DNA of 64,000 nt, from contig NZ_CP139957.1 in assembly GCF_034343125.1 (NCBI RefSeq), forward strand, positions 1,263,001 through 1,327,000, given 5' to 3'. How positions within the stretch are numbered: the first letter of the stretch is position 1; every line of letters begins with the position of its first letter. The notes beneath the pieces were generated by a model. It was not told the DNA's origin and made no database searches. It saw only the letters and a list, made by a program, of their open reading frames with translations. Source of the DNA: Caldicellulosiruptor danielii (GTDB taxonomy: Bacteria > Bacillota > Thermoanaerobacteria > Caldicellulosiruptorales > Caldicellulosiruptoraceae). The position numbers and the translations under genes are program-made. Positions 43,744 to 52,074 of this stretch are shown piece after piece.

Positions 43744-43761
43744 TTGTTATGAAATTAACAA
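43744..43761. promoter_or_regulatory. Rex-like operator over the start of the first DRTGG gene
   Basis: TTGTTATGAAATTAACAA matches the Rex consensus TTGTTAANNNNTTAACAA at 13 of 14 fixed positions. It overlaps the ATG at 43749. Rex family repressors sense the NADH/NAD+ ratio and commonly control fermentation and hydrogenase genes in Clostridia. Part of the match is coding sequence, so chance is possible. Confidence 0.5.
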
Positions 43762-44102
43762 GAATAAAAGAGCTTTTAAACTGTAAGGTTTATTTCGAGC
43801 CGGAAGAGGTAAACAGCGAAGAATTTTTAAATGCATGTGGTTCTGATCTTATGAGCGACGTTTTGGCATTTGTAAAAGAAAAGGTGATTTTATTGACAGG
43901 TCTTGTAAATCCTCAAGTGATAAGGACTGCAGAGATGATGGATATAAAAGCTGTTATAATTGTTCGAGGCAAACAACCATCTGAAGAGATGTTAAAGCTT
44001 GCAAAAGAAAAGTGTATAGCTCTTCTTGGAACCGATTATCCAATGTTTCAGGCATGTGGGATACTTTATGAGAACGGACTTGGGAAAGAAAGGTGCTGCT
44101 GA
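43749..44102 (+). CDS. DRTGG-domain protein 1 (hydrogenase-linked)
   Basis: A 117-aa protein of the DRTGG fold, a small alpha/beta domain named after a motif in phosphotransacetylase-linked proteins. Visible core: VYFEPEEVNSEEFLNACGSDLMSDVLAF, LTGLVNPQVIRTAEMMDIKAVIIVRG and CIALLGTDYPMFQACGILYE. The literal DRTGG motif is absent. SD TTGGAGG. It opens a run of small genes leading to hydABC. The second DRTGG gene (45891) looks like a distant paralogue. It is probably regulatory, binding a ligand or partner; this is inference. Confidence 0.78.
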   Translation: MKLTRIKELLNCKVYFEPEEVNSEEFLNACGSDLMSDVLAFVKEKVILLTGLVNPQVIRTAEMMDIKAVIIVRGKQPSEEMLKLAKEKCIALLGTDYPMFQACGILYENGLGKERCC

Positions 44103-44527
44103 GAAAGATGTTGCTTGAACTGGAATTTGAGATTGAACCAGGCAATTTTATGTTAGCAGGTGAAGCTTCTTCTAAGATTAAAGAGACTTTAAAGAAACTT
44201 GGTGTAAAACCAGAGGTACTCAAAAAAGTTGCCATAGTCTCTTATGAAGCGGAGATGAACATCGTTATACATTCTGTTGGTGGGATTTTGAAAGCCATAA
44301 TTTCAAAGGACAAAATTGAAGTAATAGCTCAAGACAAAGGACCTGGGATTGAAGATATAGAGCTTGCAATGAAAGAAGGGTATTCCACCGCTCCCGAAGA
44401 GATAAGAAACTTGGGATTTGGAGCGGGTATGGGTCTTCCAAACATGAAGAAGTACTCAGATTATTTTGAGATTGATTCACAAAAAGGCAAAGGTACAAGA
44501 GTGTATATGATTATTTACAATAAATGA
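44093..44527 (+). CDS. GHKL ATPase, RsbW/SpoIIAB-like
   Basis: A 144-aa histidine-kinase-type ATPase domain without a phospho-acceptor histidine domain. The N box is SYEAEMNIVIHS, the G1 box is AQDKGPGIEDIELAM, and the G2 box is FGAGMGLPNMKKYSDYFEI. This resembles anti-sigma-factor serine kinases such as RsbW. No sigma factor or RsbV-type antagonist is adjacent. I give the GTG at 44093; ATG 44108 is an alternative. It overlaps the DRTGG gene by 10 nt and precedes the H-cluster-like gene, so a role in redox or hydrogen signalling is likely. Confidence 0.82.
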   Translation: MLLRKMLLELEFEIEPGNFMLAGEASSKIKETLKKLGVKPEVLKKVAIVSYEAEMNIVIHSVGGILKAIISKDKIEVIAQDKGPGIEDIELAMKEGYSTAPEEIRNLGFGAGMGLPNMKKYSDYFEIDSQKGKGTRVYMIIYNK

Positions 44528-44559: not shown

Positions 44560-45891
44560 ATGAAAAATTTACATTCTATAATGCTTGACAAAGAGAAATG
44601 TAAAGGGTGTACAAACTGTATTAAAAGATGTCCGACTGAAGCTATTAGAGTTCGAAACTCAAAAGCAAGGATTATTGACCAAAGGTGTATAGACTGCGGG
44701 GAATGTATAAGGACATGTCCATACCACGCAAAATATGCTATTACTAACAGTTTAGAAGAAATCAATAGATTTCAATATAAGATTGCATTGCCTGCACCTT
44801 CGTTTTACGCCCAATTTGAGGTTGATGATGTAAATAAGCTACTGTATGCTTTGCTTGAACTTGGATTTGATGATGTATTTGAGGTAGCAAAAGCAGCTGA
44901 AATAGTAACCCACTTTACAAAGCAGTTTATTTTATCTGAGAAAAACAAAAAACCAATAATTTCCTCTGCTTGTCCGGCAGTTGTCAGGCTTGTCCAGACA
45001 AAATTTCCAGACCTAATAGAGAATATCTTGCCAATTGCCTCGCCTATGGAAGTTGCTGCATATATTGCTAAGAAAAAGACACAAAGAGAAAAAAGGATTG
45101 AAGAAGACAAAATAGGAGCTTTTTTTATATCTCCATGTGCAGCAAAGATGACATATGTAAATAGTCCACTTGGTTTTGAGCGTTCATATGTTGATGGGGT
45201 AATAGCAATAAAGGACGTTTATGGACTTGTAAGAAGCAAGCTCAGAGAGATAAAAGATGTAAAGTCTCTTTCGATTGCCTCAGGCAAAGGTATTGGGTGG
45301 GCAGCTTCAGGCGGTGAAAGCTTGGCATTGGAAGTTGAAGAGTATGTTAATGTAGATGGTATTCACAACGTGGCAAGAGTTTTAGAGGAGATTGAAAATG
45401 GCAAACTCAAAGACATCATATATTTTGAAGGTCTTGCTTGCAGTGGTGGGTGTGTTGGAGGACCTCTTGCAGTAGAAAATCCATATGTTGCCAAAAATCG
45501 TATTAAAAGATTGTGTTCTAACTTAAAAGACAAAGAAGAGAGTCTTTCAGCATGGACAGAGGAGATTATTAATAGTTTTTCTCTCAAGCTTAGGGATGTT
45601 ATTTTTGAAAAAGAATTAGAAACAAATCCTGTGCTTGAACTTGACTCTGACATTGAAAGAGCTATGGAAAAGTTTGAAAAGGTAAATAATATACTCAGTA
45701 TGTTGCCGGGTTTGGACTGTGGTGCTTGTGGTTCACCTACATGCAAAACTCTTGCCGAGGACATAGTGCGTGGTTTTGCTAATGACACAGATTGTATCTT
45801 CGTTCTCAGAGAAAACATAAAAGAGCTTGCAAACAAGATGGTTGAGCTTTCGAATAAACTGCCACCATCACTTGAAAGGAATGATGAGTAG
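44560..45891 (+). CDS. [FeFe]-hydrogenase-like iron-sulfur protein, putative H2/redox sensor
   Basis: 443 aa. The N-terminus has two 4Fe-4S motifs (CKGCTNCIKRC and CIDCGECIRTC). The centre is an H-cluster domain with all four cluster cysteines: C138 in SSACPAVV, C193 in SPCAAKM, and C294 and C298 in GLACSGGCVGGP. It departs from catalytic HydA: TSCxPGW becomes SACPAVV, the MPCxxK motif becomes SPCAAK, and the later GGGxP is shortened. The C-terminal FeS domain has GLDCGACGSPTC. There is no PAS domain. Such group C/D-type proteins are proposed sensors. SD AGGGAAGTG. It is distinct from hydA at 50335. Confidence 0.85.
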   Translation: MKNLHSIMLDKEKCKGCTNCIKRCPTEAIRVRNSKARIIDQRCIDCGECIRTCPYHAKYAITNSLEEINRFQYKIALPAPSFYAQFEVDDVNKLLYALLELGFDDVFEVAKAAEIVTHFTKQFILSEKNKKPIISSACPAVVRLVQTKFPDLIENILPIASPMEVAAYIAKKKTQREKRIEEDKIGAFFISPCAAKMTYVNSPLGFERSYVDGVIAIKDVYGLVRSKLREIKDVKSLSIASGKGIGWAASGGESLALEVEEYVNVDGIHNVARVLEEIENGKLKDIIYFEGLACSGGCVGGPLAVENPYVAKNRIKRLCSNLKDKEESLSAWTEEIINSFSLKLRDVIFEKELETNPVLELDSDIERAMEKFEKVNNILSMLPGLDCGACGSPTCKTLAEDIVRGFANDTDCIFVLRENIKELANKMVELSNKLPPSLERNDE

Positions 45892-46241
45892 TGCATAGCA
45901 TTTTGGATTTAAGCAGGTATTTTGAATTGGCAAATGGGATTGTAAAGGATGAGCAGTATGAAAATGTGTACATTGGAGATGTTTTAAGTTTCGCGATATC
46001 GCATATTAAGGACAACAGTATATGGATTACCATTCAAAACAATGTGAATGTGGTTGCCATAGCAACTCTCAGAGAAGTAAAAGCAATAATCTTGACAGAA
46101 GGGGTAAAACCTGACCCTGATATGTTTCAAAAATCAATAGAGCAGCAAATTCCGATTTTTACAACAGAACTTTCACATTTTGAAACAGCAAGGCTTTTGA
46201 TTCTCAAAGAAAAGGAAGATAAAAATGAGGCTTTATTATGA
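45891..46241 (+). CDS. DRTGG-domain protein 2 (hydrogenase-linked)
   Basis: A 116-aa protein with the same secondary-structure order as the DRTGG protein at 43749: an N-terminal SRYFELANGIVKDEQYE segment, GDVLSFAISHIKDNSIWIT, a repeat like VAIATLREVKAIILTEGV, and the final IPIFTTELSHFETARLLI. Sequence identity between the two is low. The GTG start overlaps the preceding TAG by one base, so the genes are tightly coupled. Its 3' end overlaps the PHP gene by 17 nt. The ligand or partner is unknown. Confidence 0.75.
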   Translation: MHSILDLSRYFELANGIVKDEQYENVYIGDVLSFAISHIKDNSIWITIQNNVNVVAIATLREVKAIILTEGVKPDPDMFQKSIEQQIPIFTTELSHFETARLLILKEKEDKNEALL

Positions 46242-46926
46242 CCTTCATATTCATTCGTTGCTCTCTCCGTGTGCAGACAATGATATGACGCCGCATAATA
46301 TTATAAATATGGCTAAGTTAAAGGGATTGGACGTTATATCAATAACAGACCATAACTGCACCTTAAACCTTGAAAGTTTTTTAAAAGTGGCAAATTTACT
46401 TGACATTCTTTTTATACCTGGAGTTGAGATTGAAACAGAAGAGGAGATTCATGTTCTGCTGTATTTTAAGCATAAAGATGTTTCAATTATAAGAGAATTT
46501 CAGAGCATTATTGACAAACATCTGCCTTTTGTAACGCTCAGAGAAGACATTTTTGGTAATCAATATATTGTTGATACACAGGACAATATAATCGGAAGCT
46601 ATGAAAAACTTCTTCTTCAACCACTTACTCTAAACTTAAAACAGATTTATGAGGTTTCCAAATTCTACAATATGATTTTTGTTCCTGCCCACATAAACAG
46701 ACAATCATTTGGTGTAATTGGAAGGCTTGGTTTTTTGCCTGAAGAGCTATCTGATTTGACCTTTTTCGAGGTATCTAAGACCGCTGAAATAGAATTTGCA
46801 AAGTTTATTCCTCAAAACAGAGATTATATTTTTCTCCACTCCTCAGATGCTCATCGTCTGTGGGAAATAAACGAAAGAGAGTTTTTTATTGAAAGTGATA
46901 TACTGTATACAATATTTTTCGATTAA
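46225..46926 (+). CDS. PHP-domain phosphoesterase
   Basis: A 233-aa stand-alone PHP domain. Metal-binding motifs are YDLHIHSLLSPCAD (HxH near residues 8-10), ITDHNC, GVEIETEEEIHVLLYF, PAHINR and HSSDAH. The family includes phosphatases such as YciV/TrpH-type nucleases. The substrate here is unknown. It is the last gene before the hydC promoter and overlaps the second DRTGG gene. TrpH-type proteins act on short RNA or on 3',5'-nucleoside bisphosphate, but nothing here fixes that choice. Confidence 0.85.
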   Translation: MRLYYDLHIHSLLSPCADNDMTPHNIINMAKLKGLDVISITDHNCTLNLESFLKVANLLDILFIPGVEIETEEEIHVLLYFKHKDVSIIREFQSIIDKHLPFVTLREDIFGNQYIVDTQDNIIGSYEKLLLQPLTLNLKQIYEVSKFYNMIFVPAHINRQSFGVIGRLGFLPEELSDLTFFEVSKTAEIEFAKFIPQNRDYIFLHSSDAHRLWEINEREFFIESDILYTIFFD

Positions 46927-46944: not shown

Positions 46945-46973
46945 TTCATTTATAACCCTTTGTATGTTACAAT
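46945..46973 (+). promoter_or_regulatory. Putative promoter of the hydC-hydA operon
   Basis: TTCATT (46945-46950), a 17-nt spacer and TACAAT (46968-46973), about 60 nt before hydC. The match is moderate. Its -10 lies inside a Rex-like operator. Confidence 0.5.
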
Positions 46974-46980
46974 ATTAACA
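46965..46980. promoter_or_regulatory. Rex-like operator 1 upstream of hydC
   Basis: TGTTACAATATTAACA fits the Rex core TGTTAANNNNTTAACA with one mismatch in 12 fixed positions. It covers the -10 of the putative hyd promoter. Confidence 0.65.
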
Positions 46981-46997
46981 GTAGTTTTAACTCAGTA

Positions 46998-47013
46998 TGT
47001 TAAATTTCTAACA
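46998..47013. promoter_or_regulatory. Rex-like operator 2 upstream of hydC
   Basis: TGTTAAATTTCTAACA fits the Rex core with one mismatch in 12 positions and is followed by the consensus A. Its centre is 33 bp from that of operator 1, close to three helical turns, which suits cooperative repression downstream of the promoter. Confidence 0.65.
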
Positions 47014-47034
47014 ATAGAAGGGGGATGCAGATTT

Positions 47035-47517
47035 ATGTCTTGTTGTCAGGGAAAGAATCTGACCGAAGAGAATTTTAAAAAGCTTGATGAGATTATTGAA
47101 AAGAATAAATCAAGAAGAGGAGCCTTAATTCCAGTTTTGCATGAGGCACAAGAACTTTTTGGATACCTGCCATATGAAGTTCAAAAGAGAATAGCAGAAG
47201 GTCTTAATATACCCATGGCAGAGGTTTACGGTGTTGCAACATTTTATACACGTTTTACATTAAAGCCGACAGGAGACCATAAGATAAGTGTATGCATGGG
47301 TACAGCTTGCTATGTTAAGGGTGCTGATAAGATTTTGGATAAGTTAAAAGAACTTTTAAAGATTGATGTAGGTGAAACAACAGAAGATGGTAAATTTTCA
47401 ATTGAAGCGACAAGATGTTTGGGAGCTTGTGGATTGGCACCAGTCGTTGTGATTGACAATACTGTTTACGGGAAATTGAGTGTGGATGATGTTGAAGATA
47501 TTTTGTCAAGATATTAA
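47035..47517 (+). CDS. hydC: NADH-dependent [FeFe] hydrogenase subunit HydC (NuoE-like)
   Basis: A 160-aa thioredoxin-like 2Fe-2S protein, homologous to NuoE. Cluster ligands are C87 and C92 (CMGTAC) and C128 and C132 (CLGAC), with the helical N-terminal domain LIPVLHEAQELFGYLP before it. I chose ATG 47035 behind AAGGGGGA; the open frame upstream covers the operator region. With hydB and hydA it forms a trimeric hydrogenase that in relatives oxidises NADH and ferredoxin together to make H2. Confidence 0.94.
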   Translation: MSCCQGKNLTEENFKKLDEIIEKNKSRRGALIPVLHEAQELFGYLPYEVQKRIAEGLNIPMAEVYGVATFYTRFTLKPTGDHKISVCMGTACYVKGADKILDKLKELLKIDVGETTEDGKFSIEATRCLGACGLAPVVVIDNTVYGKLSVDDVEDILSRY

Positions 47518-47557: not shown

Positions 47558-48115
47558 TTGAACGAGCTTTCGCTTTATATTCTTGACCTTGTGCAAAATT
47601 CGATAGAAGCAGGTGCAAGTTTGGTTAAAATTGAGATTGCCGAAGATTTGAAAGAGGACCTTTTTACCATTACAATAGAAGATAACGGCAGAGGAATTCC
47701 ACAGGATGTTATTGATAAAGTAACAGACCCTTTTTACACCACAAGAAAAACGCGAAAAGTAGGACTTGGTCTTTCTTTAGCAAAACAACTTGCAATGGAC
47801 TGTGAGGGAAGTTTTACTATTGAAAGGCTTGAAAAAGGCACTAAAATAGTGCTTAAGATGAAACATTCTCATATAGACAGACCTCCTCTTGGAAATATAA
47901 CCGAAACCTTACTTGCACTTATAAACGGTGCACCAGATTTGGATTTTAAGTTTTGTTATAAAAAAGACCGAAACGAGTTTATATTTGACACAAGAAGCAT
48001 CCGGGACATTCTGGGTGATGATATTCCTTTAAATACTCTGAGCGTTCTTGACTTTATTCGTGGTCAGTTAGAAAGTGGTTTATCAAATTTAACCGGAGGT
48101 GTAAATAATAGATGA
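47558..48115 (+). CDS. GHKL ATPase within the hyd operon
   Basis: A 185-aa histidine-kinase-type ATPase domain with no dimerisation or phospho-acceptor domain. N box DLVQNSIEAGAS (N14), G1 box DNGRGIPQDVIDK, F-box-like DPFYTT and G2 box GLGLSLAK. A unique 75-residue C-terminus follows. It lies between hydC and the next iron-sulfur gene, overlapping the latter by 4 nt, so it is made together with the hydrogenase. It starts TTG. It may be a sensor or a protein kinase; the partner is unknown. Confidence 0.85.
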   Translation: MNELSLYILDLVQNSIEAGASLVKIEIAEDLKEDLFTITIEDNGRGIPQDVIDKVTDPFYTTRKTRKVGLGLSLAKQLAMDCEGSFTIERLEKGTKIVLKMKHSHIDRPPLGNITETLLALINGAPDLDFKFCYKKDRNEFIFDTRSIRDILGDDIPLNTLSVLDFIRGQLESGLSNLTGGVNNR

Positions 48116-48501
48116 TTAAGTCTATTCAAGAGCTTGAAGAAATAAGGAAAAAGGCGTTAGAAGAACTTGAGTTCAGAAAACAACACGGTGAAGGTATAAG
48201 AATTGTTGTTGGAATGGCAACATGTGGAATAGCAGCAGGCGCAAGACCTGTTATGCTCAAGTTTGTTGAAGAGATTCAAAAAAGGAATTTAAAAAACGTC
48301 ACAGTTGTTCAGACGGGTTGTATTGGACTTTGTAAGTATGAACCAATTGTGGAGGTTTATGAACCAAATAAAGAAAAGGTCACTTATGTCAAAATGACTC
48401 CTGAAAAGGTTTTAAAGGTTGTTGCAGAGCATTTGGTCAATGGAAAACCAGTGTATGAATACACAATTGGCTATGAAGAAAATAAAGAGGCAAATAACTA
48501 A
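48112..48501 (+). CDS. Thioredoxin-like [2Fe-2S] protein (NuoE/HydB N-domain type)
   Basis: A 129-aa single-domain protein. It resembles the 2Fe-2S domain at the N-terminus of HydB, with [13 protein letters not shown] and [19 protein letters not shown]. Cysteines C38, C70 and C74 are present, but the second cysteine of the usual first pair is replaced in GIAAGA, so only three of the four common ligands are visible. Proteins of this kind are found between the NuoE-like and NuoF-like genes in Thermoanaerobacter and Thermotoga hydrogenase operons. It may carry electrons or bind the HydB subunit. SD GGAGGTG. Confidence 0.85.
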
Positions 48502-48518: not shown

Positions 48519-50315
48519 ATGCCATTGTACAGATCGCACGTTCTTGTATGCGGTGGGACAGGTTGTACATCAGGTGGGTCAGATAGAATATATGATGCAT
48601 TTTTAAAAGAGATTGAAGCTCAGAATTTAAAAGATGAGGTTCAGGTAATTCGTACAGGTTGTTTTGGACTTTGTGCAGAAGGTCCAATTGTGATTGTTTA
48701 TCCAGAAGGAGCATTTTACAGCAAGGTTGCAGACTCTGATGTAAAAGAGATTGTTGAAGAGCATCTTTTAAAAGGAAGAATAGTAAAAAGACTTTTATAT
48801 AAAGAGTCGATAGAAGAAGGTCAGATCAAATCGTTAAATGAAGTCAAATTCTATAAAAAACAGATGCGAATTGCTCTCAGAAACTGCGGTGTTATAAATC
48901 CAGAAAATATCGAAGAATATATCGCGTATGATGGTTACAAGGCTTTAGCAAAGGTACTTACAGAGATGACACCTGAACAAGTGATTGATTGGGTAAAAAG
49001 GTCAGGTCTTAGAGGAAGAGGTGGCGGTGGTTTCCCAACAGGACTCAAATGGGAGTTTGCAGCAAAAGCTCCGGGTGATGTTAAGTATGTTGTTTGCAAC
49101 GCAGACGAAGGTGACCCAGGTGCGTACATGGACAGAAGCATCTTAGAAGGCGACCCGCATTCTGTAATTGAAGCAATGGCTATCGCTGGATATGCTATTG
49201 GTTCAAAGCAAGGTTATGTGTATGTCAGAGCAGAGTATCCATTGGCAGTAAAAAGACTTGAAGTTGCCATAGAGCAGGCAAGGCAGTACGGGCTTTTGGG
49301 CAAGAATATATTGGGTACAAACTTTGAATTTGATATCGAAATAAGGCTTGGTGCTGGAGCATTTGTTTGTGGTGAGGAAACAGCGCTAATGACATCAATT
49401 GAAGGACACAGAGGAGAACCACGCCCAAGGCCACCATTCCCAGCTGTAAAAGGTCTGTGGGGAAAACCTACTTTACTTAATAACGTTGAGACATACGCAA
49501 ACATTCCAGTAATAATTCTAAAGGGTCCAGAGTGGTTTGCATCAATTGGAACAGAGAAGAGCAAAGGAACAAAAGTTTTTGCACTTGTTGGAAAGGTTAA
49601 TAATACAGGACTTATTGAGGTTCCAATGGGAACAACTGTAAGAGAGATAGTTGAGGATATTGGTGGCGGAATTCCTGGCGGCAAAAAATTTAAGGCGGTT
49701 CAAACAGGTGGACCATCAGGTGGATGTATCCCAGCATCGCTAATGGACACACCAATTGACTTTGATTCTTTGACTGCACTTGGTACAATGATGGGATCTG
49801 GCGGAATGATTGTGATGGATGAAGACACCTGTATGGTTGACATAGCAAAGTTCTTCTTAGAATTTACAGTTGATGAGTCATGCGGAAAATGTCCACCATG
49901 TAGAATAGGGACAAGAAGAATGCTTGAAATTTTGCAGAAGATAACAAGCGGAAATGGTACAGAAGAAGATTTAGAAAAGTTAGAAGAACTTGCATACTCA
50001 ATAAAAGACAGTGCTCTTTGTGGACTTGGTCAGACTGCACCAAATCCTGTTTTGAGTACACTAAGATACTTTAGAGATGAGTATGAGGCACATGTAAAAG
50101 AAAAGAGATGTCCTGCAGGTGCTTGCAAGGCACTACTCAGAATTGTGATAGACAAAGAACTTTGTAAAGGCTGTGGCATATGTGCTAAGAACTGTCCTGC
50201 AAATGCTATTACAGGCCAAATCAAAAAGCCTTTTGAGATTGACCAAAGCAAATGTATCAAATGCGGCGTTTGCATAGAGAAGTGTCCGTTTAAAGCAATC
50301 TCCAAGAAGGCATAA
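48519..50315 (+). CDS. hydB: NADH-dependent [FeFe] hydrogenase subunit HydB (NuoF-like)
   Basis: 598 aa, the flavin subunit of the trimeric hydrogenase. Domains in order: a thioredoxin-like 2Fe-2S domain (CGGTGC and TGCFGLC), the FMN and NADH site with [16 protein letters not shown] and [13 protein letters not shown], a SLBB domain, the NuoF 4Fe-4S motif [13 protein letters not shown], and a C-terminal pair of 4Fe-4S motifs ([11 protein letters not shown] and [11 protein letters not shown]). This set is that of bifurcating HydB. SD AAAGGAGGG. Confidence 0.96.
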
Positions 50316-50334: not shown

Positions 50335-52074
50335 ATGGAAATGGTTAATATAACAATAGATGGCAAGAAGATTCAGGTGCCAAAGGATTATACAGTGCTT
50401 CAGGCAGCACGCGAAGCAGGAGTTGAGATTCCAACTCTTTGTTATCTCAAAGGTATAAACGAAATTGGTGCTTGCAGAATGTGTGTTGTTGAAGTAAAAG
50501 GGGCAAGAAGTTTACAAGCTGCTTGTGTCTACCCTGTGTCAGAAGGCATGGAAGTAATCACAAACAGTGAAAGGGTAAGAAGAGCAAGAAAGGTTAATCT
50601 TGAGCTTATTCTTTCGAATCATGACAGAAGCTGCTTGACATGCGTTAGAAGCGGAAATTGTGAACTTCAAAAGCTTGCAGAAGATTTAAATGTTAAGCAA
50701 ATTAGATATGAAGGCGAAAATATAAGAAGACCTCTTGATGATTTTTCACCTTCTGTTGTAAGAGACCCCAATAAGTGTATACTTTGTAAAAGATGTATAA
50801 ATGTCTGCAGGAATGTTCAAGAGGTTGGAGTTATAAACGCAAATTACAGAGGTTTCAAAACAGTTATATCCACTGCGTTTGACAGAAGTCTAAATGATGT
50901 TGCATGTACAATGTGTGGTCAATGTATTCAGGCTTGCCCAGTTGGAGCTTTAAGAGAAAAAGATTCAACAGATATTGTGTGGAAGGCACTCGCTGACAAT
51001 AACAAATATGTGGTTGTTCAAACAGCTCCAGCTGTCAGAGTTGCACTTGGTGAAGAGTTTGGACTTCCAATTGGTACAAGAGTTACCGGCAAGATGGTAA
51101 CTGCTCTCAAGATGCTCGGATTTGACAAGGTATTTGATACAGACACAGGTGCAGACCTTACAATAATGGAAGAAGGTACAGAGCTGATAAATAGAATCAA
51201 AAATGGTGGTAAACTTCCTCTTATTACTTCTTGTTCTCCGGGATGGATTAAGTTCTGTGAACACTACTTCCCAGAATTTTTAGATAATTTATCTACCTGC
51301 AAATCACCACATGAGATGTTTGGTGCTATTTTAAAAACATACTTTGCTCAGAAAATGGGAATTGACCCTGCAAACATGTTTGTTGTCTCTGTCATGCCAT
51401 GTACTGCTAAGAAATTCGAAGCTCAAAGAGAAGAACTTGCTGCAAGTGGATATCCGGACGTTGATGCAGTTTTGACAACAAGAGAGCTCGCAAGAATGAT
51501 AAAAGAAGCGGGAATTGACTTTGTGAACTTGCCAGATAGTCATTTTGACGATCCAATGGGAGATGCAACAGGTGCAGGTGTCATCTTTGGAACAACAGGT
51601 GGTGTAATGGAAGCAGCACTGCGAACTGTATATGAAGTGATGACAGGAAAAACCCTTGAAAATGTTGAAATTACCCAAGTTCGTGGCCTTGAAGGAATAA
51701 GAGAGGCTGAGATTGACGTCGGTAGTATGAAGATTAAAGCAGCTGTTGCACATGGTCTTGCAAACGCTAAAAAACTTCTTGAGATGGTCAAAAACGGTGA
51801 AAAAGAATATCACTTTATAGAAATCATGGCATGCCCTGGCGGATGCATAATGGGTGGAGGTCAGCCAATTGTTCCTGCAAAGGTAAAAGAAAAAGTAGAT
51901 GTTGCAAAACTCAGAGCAAGTGCAATATACGATGAGGATAGGTCCCTGCCAATAAGAAAGTCTCATGAAAACCCTGCTATAAAAAGATTATATGAAGAGT
52001 TCTTAGGTCATCCAAATAGCGAAAAAGCTCATCATATTCTGCATACACACTATAAGAAAAGACCACTGTACTGA
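50335..52074 (+). CDS. hydA: [FeFe] hydrogenase catalytic subunit HydA
   Basis: 579 aa. N-terminal 2Fe-2S ferredoxin domain (CRMC within GACRMCVVEVKG), the His-ligated 4Fe-4S motif (HDRSCLTCVRSGNC), two 4Fe-4S motifs (CILCKRCINVC, CTMCGQCIQAC), then the H-cluster domain with all three signatures: TSCSPGW (C300), MPCTAKKFE (C356) and EIMACPGGCIMGGGQP (C500, C504). A small-subunit-like C-terminus ends HTHYKKRPLY. This is a typical group A M3 enzyme. SD GGGAGGG. It is followed by a terminator. Maturases HydEFG are not in the window. Confidence 0.97.
   Translation: MEMVNITIDGKKIQVPKDYTVLQAAREAGVEIPTLCYLKGINEIGACRMCVVEVKGARSLQAACVYPVSEGMEVITNSERVRRARKVNLELILSNHDRSCLTCVRSGNCELQKLAEDLNVKQIRYEGENIRRPLDDFSPSVVRDPNKCILCKRCINVCRNVQEVGVINANYRGFKTVISTAFDRSLNDVACTMCGQCIQACPVGALREKDSTDIVWKALADNNKYVVVQTAPAVRVALGEEFGLPIGTRVTGKMVTALKMLGFDKVFDTDTGADLTIMEEGTELINRIKNGGKLPLITSCSPGWIKFCEHYFPEFLDNLSTCKSPHEMFGAILKTYFAQKMGIDPANMFVVSVMPCTAKKFEAQREELAASGYPDVDAVLTTRELARMIKEAGIDFVNLPDSHFDDPMGDATGAGVIFGTTGGVMEAALRTVYEVMTGKTLENVEITQVRGLEGIREAEIDVGSMKIKAAVAHGLANAKKLLEMVKNGEKEYHFIEIMACPGGCIMGGGQPIVPAKVKEKVDVAKLRASAIYDEDRSLPIRKSHENPAIKRLYEEFLGHPNSEKAHHILHTHYKKRPLY

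What the first reader, a model, noticed from the sequence alone, without database searches (positions are those of the whole stretch)
44560..45891. H-cluster protein with conserved cysteines but altered signatures: probable sensor
All four H-cluster cysteines (C138, C193, C294, C298) are kept, but the residues around them differ from catalytic HydA: SACPAVV for TSCxPGW and SPCAAK for MPCTAKK. The bifurcating enzyme HydA with full signatures is encoded only 6 kb away. Retained ligands with changed second-sphere residues are expected of a slow or non-turnover sensor. Unlike known HydS types it has no PAS domain; it ends instead in a further 4Fe-4S domain.
Basis: partly seen in the sequence, partly recalled or inferred. 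Interest (0 to 1): 0.72.

Follow-up and report, generated by a model that had tools for sequence, protein, structure and literature searches.

The report
Group D hydrogen-sensor hydrogenase HydS
The gene encodes a known kind of slow, probably hydrogen-sensing iron hydrogenase (group D, like TamHydS of Thermoanaerobacter mathranii), and the new information is that it travels in a strongly conserved small signalling cassette whose genes are sometimes fused to it.

Summary
The ORF at 44560-45891(+) is real: 443 aa, conserved at 79-96% in 11 other genomes of the genus. It has two N-terminal [4Fe-4S] sites, an H-domain with all four H-cluster cysteines (C138, C193, C294, C298) and a C-terminal Cx2Cx4Cx16C cluster. 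It groups with Thermoanaerobacter-type group D (M2e) [FeFe] hydrogenases (support 100), not catalytic group A (p-AU 0.0014). It keeps the group D marks published for TamHydS: Ala for the proton-relay Cys299, Ser/Leu for Met353/Met497, and the group D proton path. The observation and the sensor idea are largely right. The claim that it differs from known HydS types is wrong: no PAS and an extra C-terminal cluster are what defines group D. TamHydS also turns over reversibly, so 'non-turnover' is not expected. Beyond what I found published: in 42 loci the gene always adjoins, or is fused to, a SpoIIAB/RsbW-like GHKL ATPase; in 40 it adjoins or is fused to a DRTGG protein; in 38 a PHP phosphoesterase lies nearby. 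HydABC is linked on the same strand in only 27. Fusions (HydS-DRTGG, GHKL-HydS, DRTGG-GHKL) suggest these are its signalling partners.

The parts
43749..44102 (+). DRTGG-domain protein 1, first gene of the sensor cassette
   Evidence: Pfam DRTGG E 3e-5, just under its curated cut-off; position conserved in 37 of 42 loci
44093..44527 (+). SpoIIAB/RsbW-like GHKL ATPase (putative serine kinase or binding switch)
   Evidence: HATPase_c_2; anti-sigma F profile below its cut-off; N-box E-x3-N and G1/G2 boxes at least 90% conserved in 42 proteins
44560..45891 (+). HydS, group D (M2e) [FeFe] hydrogenase
44578..44730 (+). N-terminal two-[4Fe-4S] ferredoxin domain (residues 7-57; C14,17,20,24,43,46,49,53)
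   Evidence: Fer4_10; cysteines invariant in 57 group D proteins
44971..44973 (+). C138, H-cluster ligand; A137 before it replaces the group A proton-relay cysteine (CpI C299)
   Evidence: invariant Cys; position 137 is Ala in 48 of 57, never Cys
45136..45138 (+). C193, H-cluster ligand; S191 replaces CpI M353
   Evidence: position 191 is S or T in all 57 proteins
45307..45357 (+). group D proton-path residues S250, E253, D266 (TamHydS S249, E252, D265)
   Evidence: E 55/57, D 55/57, S/T 39/57; path from PMC10407848
45427..45453 (+). E290 (TamHydS E289), L292 (for CpI M497), C294 and C298 H-cluster ligands
   Evidence: E290, C294, C298 invariant in 57
45703..45801 (+). C-terminal FeS domain, Cx2Cx4Cx16C (C387, C390, C395, C412)
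   Evidence: PF04060 E 6.5e-12; cysteines invariant in 57
45891..46241 (+). DRTGG-domain protein 2; its counterpart is fused to HydS in two genomes
   Evidence: Pfam DRTGG E 7.5e-9; next to or fused to HydS in 40 of 42 loci
46225..46926 (+). PHP-domain phosphoesterase
   Evidence: PHP E 1e-8; metal-site H, D and E residues at least 90% conserved in 38 proteins
46960..47517 (+). HydC (NuoE-like), first gene of the catalytic operon; a likelier start is the ATG at 47035
   Evidence: 2Fe-2S_thioredx E 3e-54; ribosome-binding site before 47035
47558..48115 (+). second GHKL ATPase, between HydC and the thioredoxin-like gene
   Evidence: HATPase_c E 1e-18
48112..48501 (+). thioredoxin-like [2Fe-2S] protein
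   Evidence: 2Fe-2S_thioredx E 7e-5, just under its cut-off
48519..50315 (+). HydB (NuoF-like)
50335..52074 (+). HydA, catalytic group A (bifurcating/NADH-linked) hydrogenase
   Evidence: NF040763 group A6, 960 bits against cut-off 765; group A clade 100

Best explanation
This is a group D (M2e) [FeFe] hydrogenase, an ortholog of TamHydS. It binds an H-cluster (inferred) and reacts slowly and reversibly with H2 through a group-D-specific proton path (residues shown; activity inferred from TamHydS). Its job is most likely to report H2 or redox state rather than carry flux. [quoted passage not shown] That change would be relayed through direct partners encoded beside it, a DRTGG protein and a SpoIIAB/RsbW-like GHKL ATPase, with a PHP phosphoesterase downstream, to adjust H2/NADH/ferredoxin metabolism such as the adjacent HydABC hydrogenase (inferred from gene order and fusions).
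For: Tree: group D clade of 57 rows at 100, group A 51 rows at 100, query inside D; query with group A rejected, p-AU 0.0014. Of eight Thermoanaerobacter-type proteins, seven match all 20 TamHydS residues taken from the papers and one matches 19; the query keeps those that define group D. AlphaFold model (pLDDT 90) matches [FeFe] hydrogenases at Z up to 37. The maturases HydF and HydG are in the genome. GHKL ATPase adjacent or fused in 42/42 loci, DRTGG in 40/42, PHP in 38/42, HydABC same-strand in 27/42. Fusions: HydS-DRTGG, GHKL-HydS and DRTGG-GHKL. In one family HydS sits instead with a histidine kinase, a response regulator, CheW and an H-domain/MCP fusion, without HydABC.
Against: No group D protein has been shown to sense H2 in a cell. 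TamHydS turns over reversibly, and its C-terminal cluster does not change redox state with H2 (PMC13104023). No sigma factor, anti-anti-sigma factor or DNA-binding protein is encoded in the cassette. The window's protein itself has not been assayed, as far as I found.
Confidence: 0.8

Rival explanations
1. A slow redox valve or accessory electron-transfer enzyme: it exchanges electrons between H2 and ferredoxin at low rate and has no signalling role.
For: Complete ferredoxin domain and proton path; TamHydS is catalytically active in both directions (PMC8163306); some loci sit beside rnf genes (L183).
Against: Low activity of TamHydS; universal association with a GHKL ATPase and near-universal association with DRTGG and PHP genes; HydABC or rnf linkage is less constant.
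Confidence: 0.12
2. A regulatory or structural subunit, or an assembly factor, of HydABC itself.
For: Encoded directly upstream of HydABC in 27 of 42 loci.
Against: Nine of 42 loci have the sensor gene with no HydABC genes nearby, and two more have HydABC on the opposite strand. No solved chain in the PDB sequence search is a close HydS relative, although HydABC complexes are solved.
Confidence: 0.06
3. A catalytic group A hydrogenase with drifted motifs.
For: Same fold and the same four ligand-cysteine positions.
Against: Rejected by the tree and by conservation of the altered residues across 57 proteins.
Confidence: 0.02

Closest known systems
TamHydS, group D / M2e putatively sensory [FeFe] hydrogenase of Thermoanaerobacter mathranii (PMC8163306, PMC10407848, PMC13104023)
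   Same: Same domain order, same C299A, M353S and M497L exchanges, same proton-path residues, same C-terminal cluster, same position upstream of a group A bifurcating hydrogenase; about 55% identity to the Thermoanaerobacter-type proteins.
   Different: TamHydS E122 and K126 are Q and S here, positions that vary across group D. The 2020 paper calls a flanking gene an AraC regulator; in the Thermoanaerobacter-type locus read here the flanking genes are a GHKL ATPase and DRTGG proteins without an AraC domain.
TmHydS, group C (M2f) PAS-type sensory [FeFe] hydrogenase of Thermotoga maritima (PMC10055695)
   Same: Two N-terminal clusters, H-domain without Cys299, C-terminal FeS domain.
   Different: Group C proteins continue into PAS and output domains (sigma-54 activator, MCP and others) and lie elsewhere in the tree; here the next gene is a DRTGG protein, occasionally fused to HydS.
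Group A bifurcating/NADH-linked HydA (window 50335-52074)
   Same: H-domain fold and the MPCxAK and CxxxC ligand motifs.
   Different: Lacks the C-terminal FeS domain, keeps Met at the 353 and 497 positions and Cys at the 299 position; separate clade.

Membership tests
group D (M2e) [FeFe] hydrogenase | four H-cluster cysteines in an H-domain | tested here: met
   C138, C193, C294, C298; invariant in 57
group D (M2e) [FeFe] hydrogenase | two N-terminal [4Fe-4S] motifs and a C-terminal Cx2Cx4Cx16C motif, no PAS | tested here: met
group D (M2e) [FeFe] hydrogenase | Cys299 lost, Met353 to Ser/Thr, group D proton path E252/E289/D265 | tested here: met
   A137, S191, E253, E290, D266
group D (M2e) [FeFe] hydrogenase | phylogenetic placement with group D | tested here: met
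   100 SH-aLRT; no record named T. mathranii was fetched, so the Thermoanaerobacter-type rows were recognised by the published residue numbering
group D (M2e) [FeFe] hydrogenase | low, reversible H2 turnover and CO tolerance | not testable with these tools
   needs purified, matured protein
group C (M2f) sensory hydrogenase | C-terminal PAS or other fused output domain | tested here: not met
   no PAS hit; the protein ends 31 residues after the last cluster cysteine
group A catalytic hydrogenase | placement in group A | tested here: not met
   p-AU 0.0014
H2 sensor (function) | H2-dependent signal to a regulatory output | not testable with these tools
   gene context only

The most novel reading that the evidence does not exclude
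Group D HydS is the input subunit of a dedicated signalling cassette, DRTGG - GHKL ATPase - HydS - DRTGG - PHP, in which DRTGG takes the relay role that PAS plays in group C and a SpoIIAB/RsbW-like kinase or partner switch is the output. This would be an H2-sensing route unlike the known HoxJ-type or PAS-fused types.
Probability: 0.55. Interest if true: 0.62.

Novelty: new member of a known kind. Interest (0 to 1): 0.38.

Why it matters
The protein adds a well-placed ortholog to a class whose H2-sensing role has been assumed since 2020 without a known signalling partner. The conserved cassette and the three kinds of gene fusion name concrete partners (DRTGG protein, GHKL ATPase) that can be tested by pull-down or phosphotransfer, and would explain how a sensor without a PAS domain passes its signal on.

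Tried and rejected
Group A membership: rejected by the tree and AU test. PAS domain: none found. AraC regulator beside HydS: in the Thermoanaerobacter-type locus only DRTGG is found. A named T. mathranii record: the single genome-contig scan returned only two loci, so Thermoanaerobacter-type rows were recognised by reproducing published residue numbers. Rex operators: a palindrome at 46997-47014 fits the Rex site reported upstream of the Hyd genes in C. bescii (PMC6391272), but matches at that stringency are no more frequent than chance in the window. Structure matches cover residues 1-360; the C-terminal cluster domain was hardly tested structurally. The 2010 paper that defined M2e (Calusinska et al., cited in the papers read) was not read here, so the cassette or parts of it may already be shown there.

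Full report
Observation. The ORF 44560-45891(+) begins with ATG and encodes 443 aa. Pfam gives Fe_hyd_lg_C (E 6e-38), two Fer4 sites and FeS PF04060 at 382-414, and no PAS. All 12 other genomes of the family carry the protein at 68-96% identity. AlphaFold with 41 sequences gives mean pLDDT 90 and pTM 0.87. The model aligns with solved [FeFe] hydrogenases at Z up to 37 over about 350 residues.

Which group. I collected 153 H-domain sequences from genomes of the same phylum, with group labels set by motif and position of the H-domain before the tree was built. Group D (57 rows with the query) is one side of a branch with support 100; so is group A (51 rows, including the window's HydA). Group B has 97, and the PAS/sigma-54/MCP-type group C rows lie elsewhere. 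In a thinned tree of 59 rows, forcing the query together with group A costs 55.7 log-likelihood units and is rejected (p-AU 0.0014). The order of groups A-D relative to each other is not claimed.

Residues. The papers on TamHydS give numbered residues (PMC8163306, PMC10407848, PMC13104023). Of eight rows of one genus in this class, counted from a methionine start, seven match all 20 residues checked and one matches 19, which identifies them as Thermoanaerobacter-type HydS. Against that numbering the query keeps A137 (for CpI Cys299), S191 (Met353), L292 (Met497), the proton path S250/E253/D266/E290, the N-terminal R30, R32, K35, R42 and K58, and D386 and D411 beside the C-terminal cluster cysteines. 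Across 57 group D proteins the H-cluster and accessory cysteines are invariant; E290 is invariant, E253 and D266 occur in 55, and position 137 is never Cys.

Correction on HydA. Its L1 motif is TSCSPGW, not TSCCPGW: in an ungapped alignment the second cysteine, the cubane ligand in CpI, is Ser. The same motif occurs in 50 of 57 group A proteins here and in the solved A. woodii HydA1, so it is a common form of the bifurcating type.

Neighbourhood. In the window the order is DRTGG - GHKL - HydS - DRTGG - PHP, then HydC - GHKL - thioredoxin-like - HydB - HydA. Several genes of the first block overlap by a few bases. I read 42 loci (the window, L073 and 40 others picked for spread of families, not at random). 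The GHKL ATPase lies next to HydS or is fused to it in all 42. A DRTGG gene follows HydS or is fused to it in 40, a PHP gene is present in 38, and a DRTGG gene precedes or is fused to the GHKL gene in 37. HydABC follows on the same strand in 27; it is on the opposite strand in two; nine loci have none nearby; four are partial or cut off by the end of the stretch. The core therefore follows HydS more closely than HydABC does. Fusions confirmed by Pfam: HydS-DRTGG in L056 and L184, GHKL-HydS in L167 and DRTGG-GHKL in L098. The GHKL proteins keep the N-box E-x3-N and glycine boxes, and the PHP proteins keep their metal-site residues, so both look enzymatically competent. One family (L105, L106) has a different setting: histidine kinase, OmpR-type regulator, CheW, GHKL, HydS and an H-domain protein ending in an MCP signalling domain, without HydABC (domains checked in L105).

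What is published. Group D is described as putatively sensory, with TamHydS as the model member. It turns over slowly and reversibly, H2 reduces the H-cluster and one N-terminal cluster but not the C-terminal one, and H2 induces a secondary-structure change. [quoted passage not shown] PMC3608648 notes the upstream kinase and group D-like hydrogenase in Thermoanaerobacter; PMC3492117 mentions upstream regulatory elements in C. thermocellum. I found no paper in this library describing the DRTGG/GHKL/PHP cassette or the fusions, but the library lacks most subscription papers.

Mechanism. Shown by sequence: group D placement, intact H-cluster ligands, intact group D proton path, cassette and fusions. 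Inferred from TamHydS: H-cluster assembly, slow reversible H2 chemistry, H2-induced conformational change. Inferred from context only: relay through DRTGG and the GHKL ATPase, and regulation of H2 metabolism. Maturases HydF and HydG are in the genome; HydE was not searched.

Verdict. An ordinary, well-conserved member of a known but poorly understood class.

Noticed in passing
L165:5397-7274(-) (window genome, C1 about 1603397-1605274): A third H-cluster-type protein of the same genome: all four ligand cysteines, a C-terminal FeS domain and an MCP signalling domain (626 aa), resembling the putative chemotactic C2 type of HydDB.
   Followed up: partly
window 50335-52074: Catalytic HydA has TSCSPGW: Ser at the position of the CpI cubane ligand Cys300, Cys at the Cys299 position; 50 of 57 group A proteins examined share this.
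   Followed up: partly
window 43744-43761: TTGTTATGAAATTAACAA, an exact TTGTTA-N6-TAACAA palindrome over the start codon of DRTGG1, the only exact match in the genome; it resembles a Rex operator but overlaps coding sequence, and the reversed control pattern had 5 matches.
   Followed up: partly
window 46997-47014: Rex-like palindrome ATGTTAAATTTCTAACAA just upstream of the likely HydC start (ATG 47035), consistent with the Rex site reported for the Hyd genes of C. bescii; it hints that the sensor cassette and HydABC have separate promoters.
   Followed up: partly
L183:130-7792 and L073: Group D HydS cassette beside rnf genes instead of HydABC in some lineages (RnfC confirmed in L183; L073 by profile hits only).
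   Followed up: partly
L105:5937-15373: HydS next to a Cache-GAF-PAS histidine kinase, an OmpR-type regulator, CheW and an H-domain/MCP fusion protein.
   Followed up: partly
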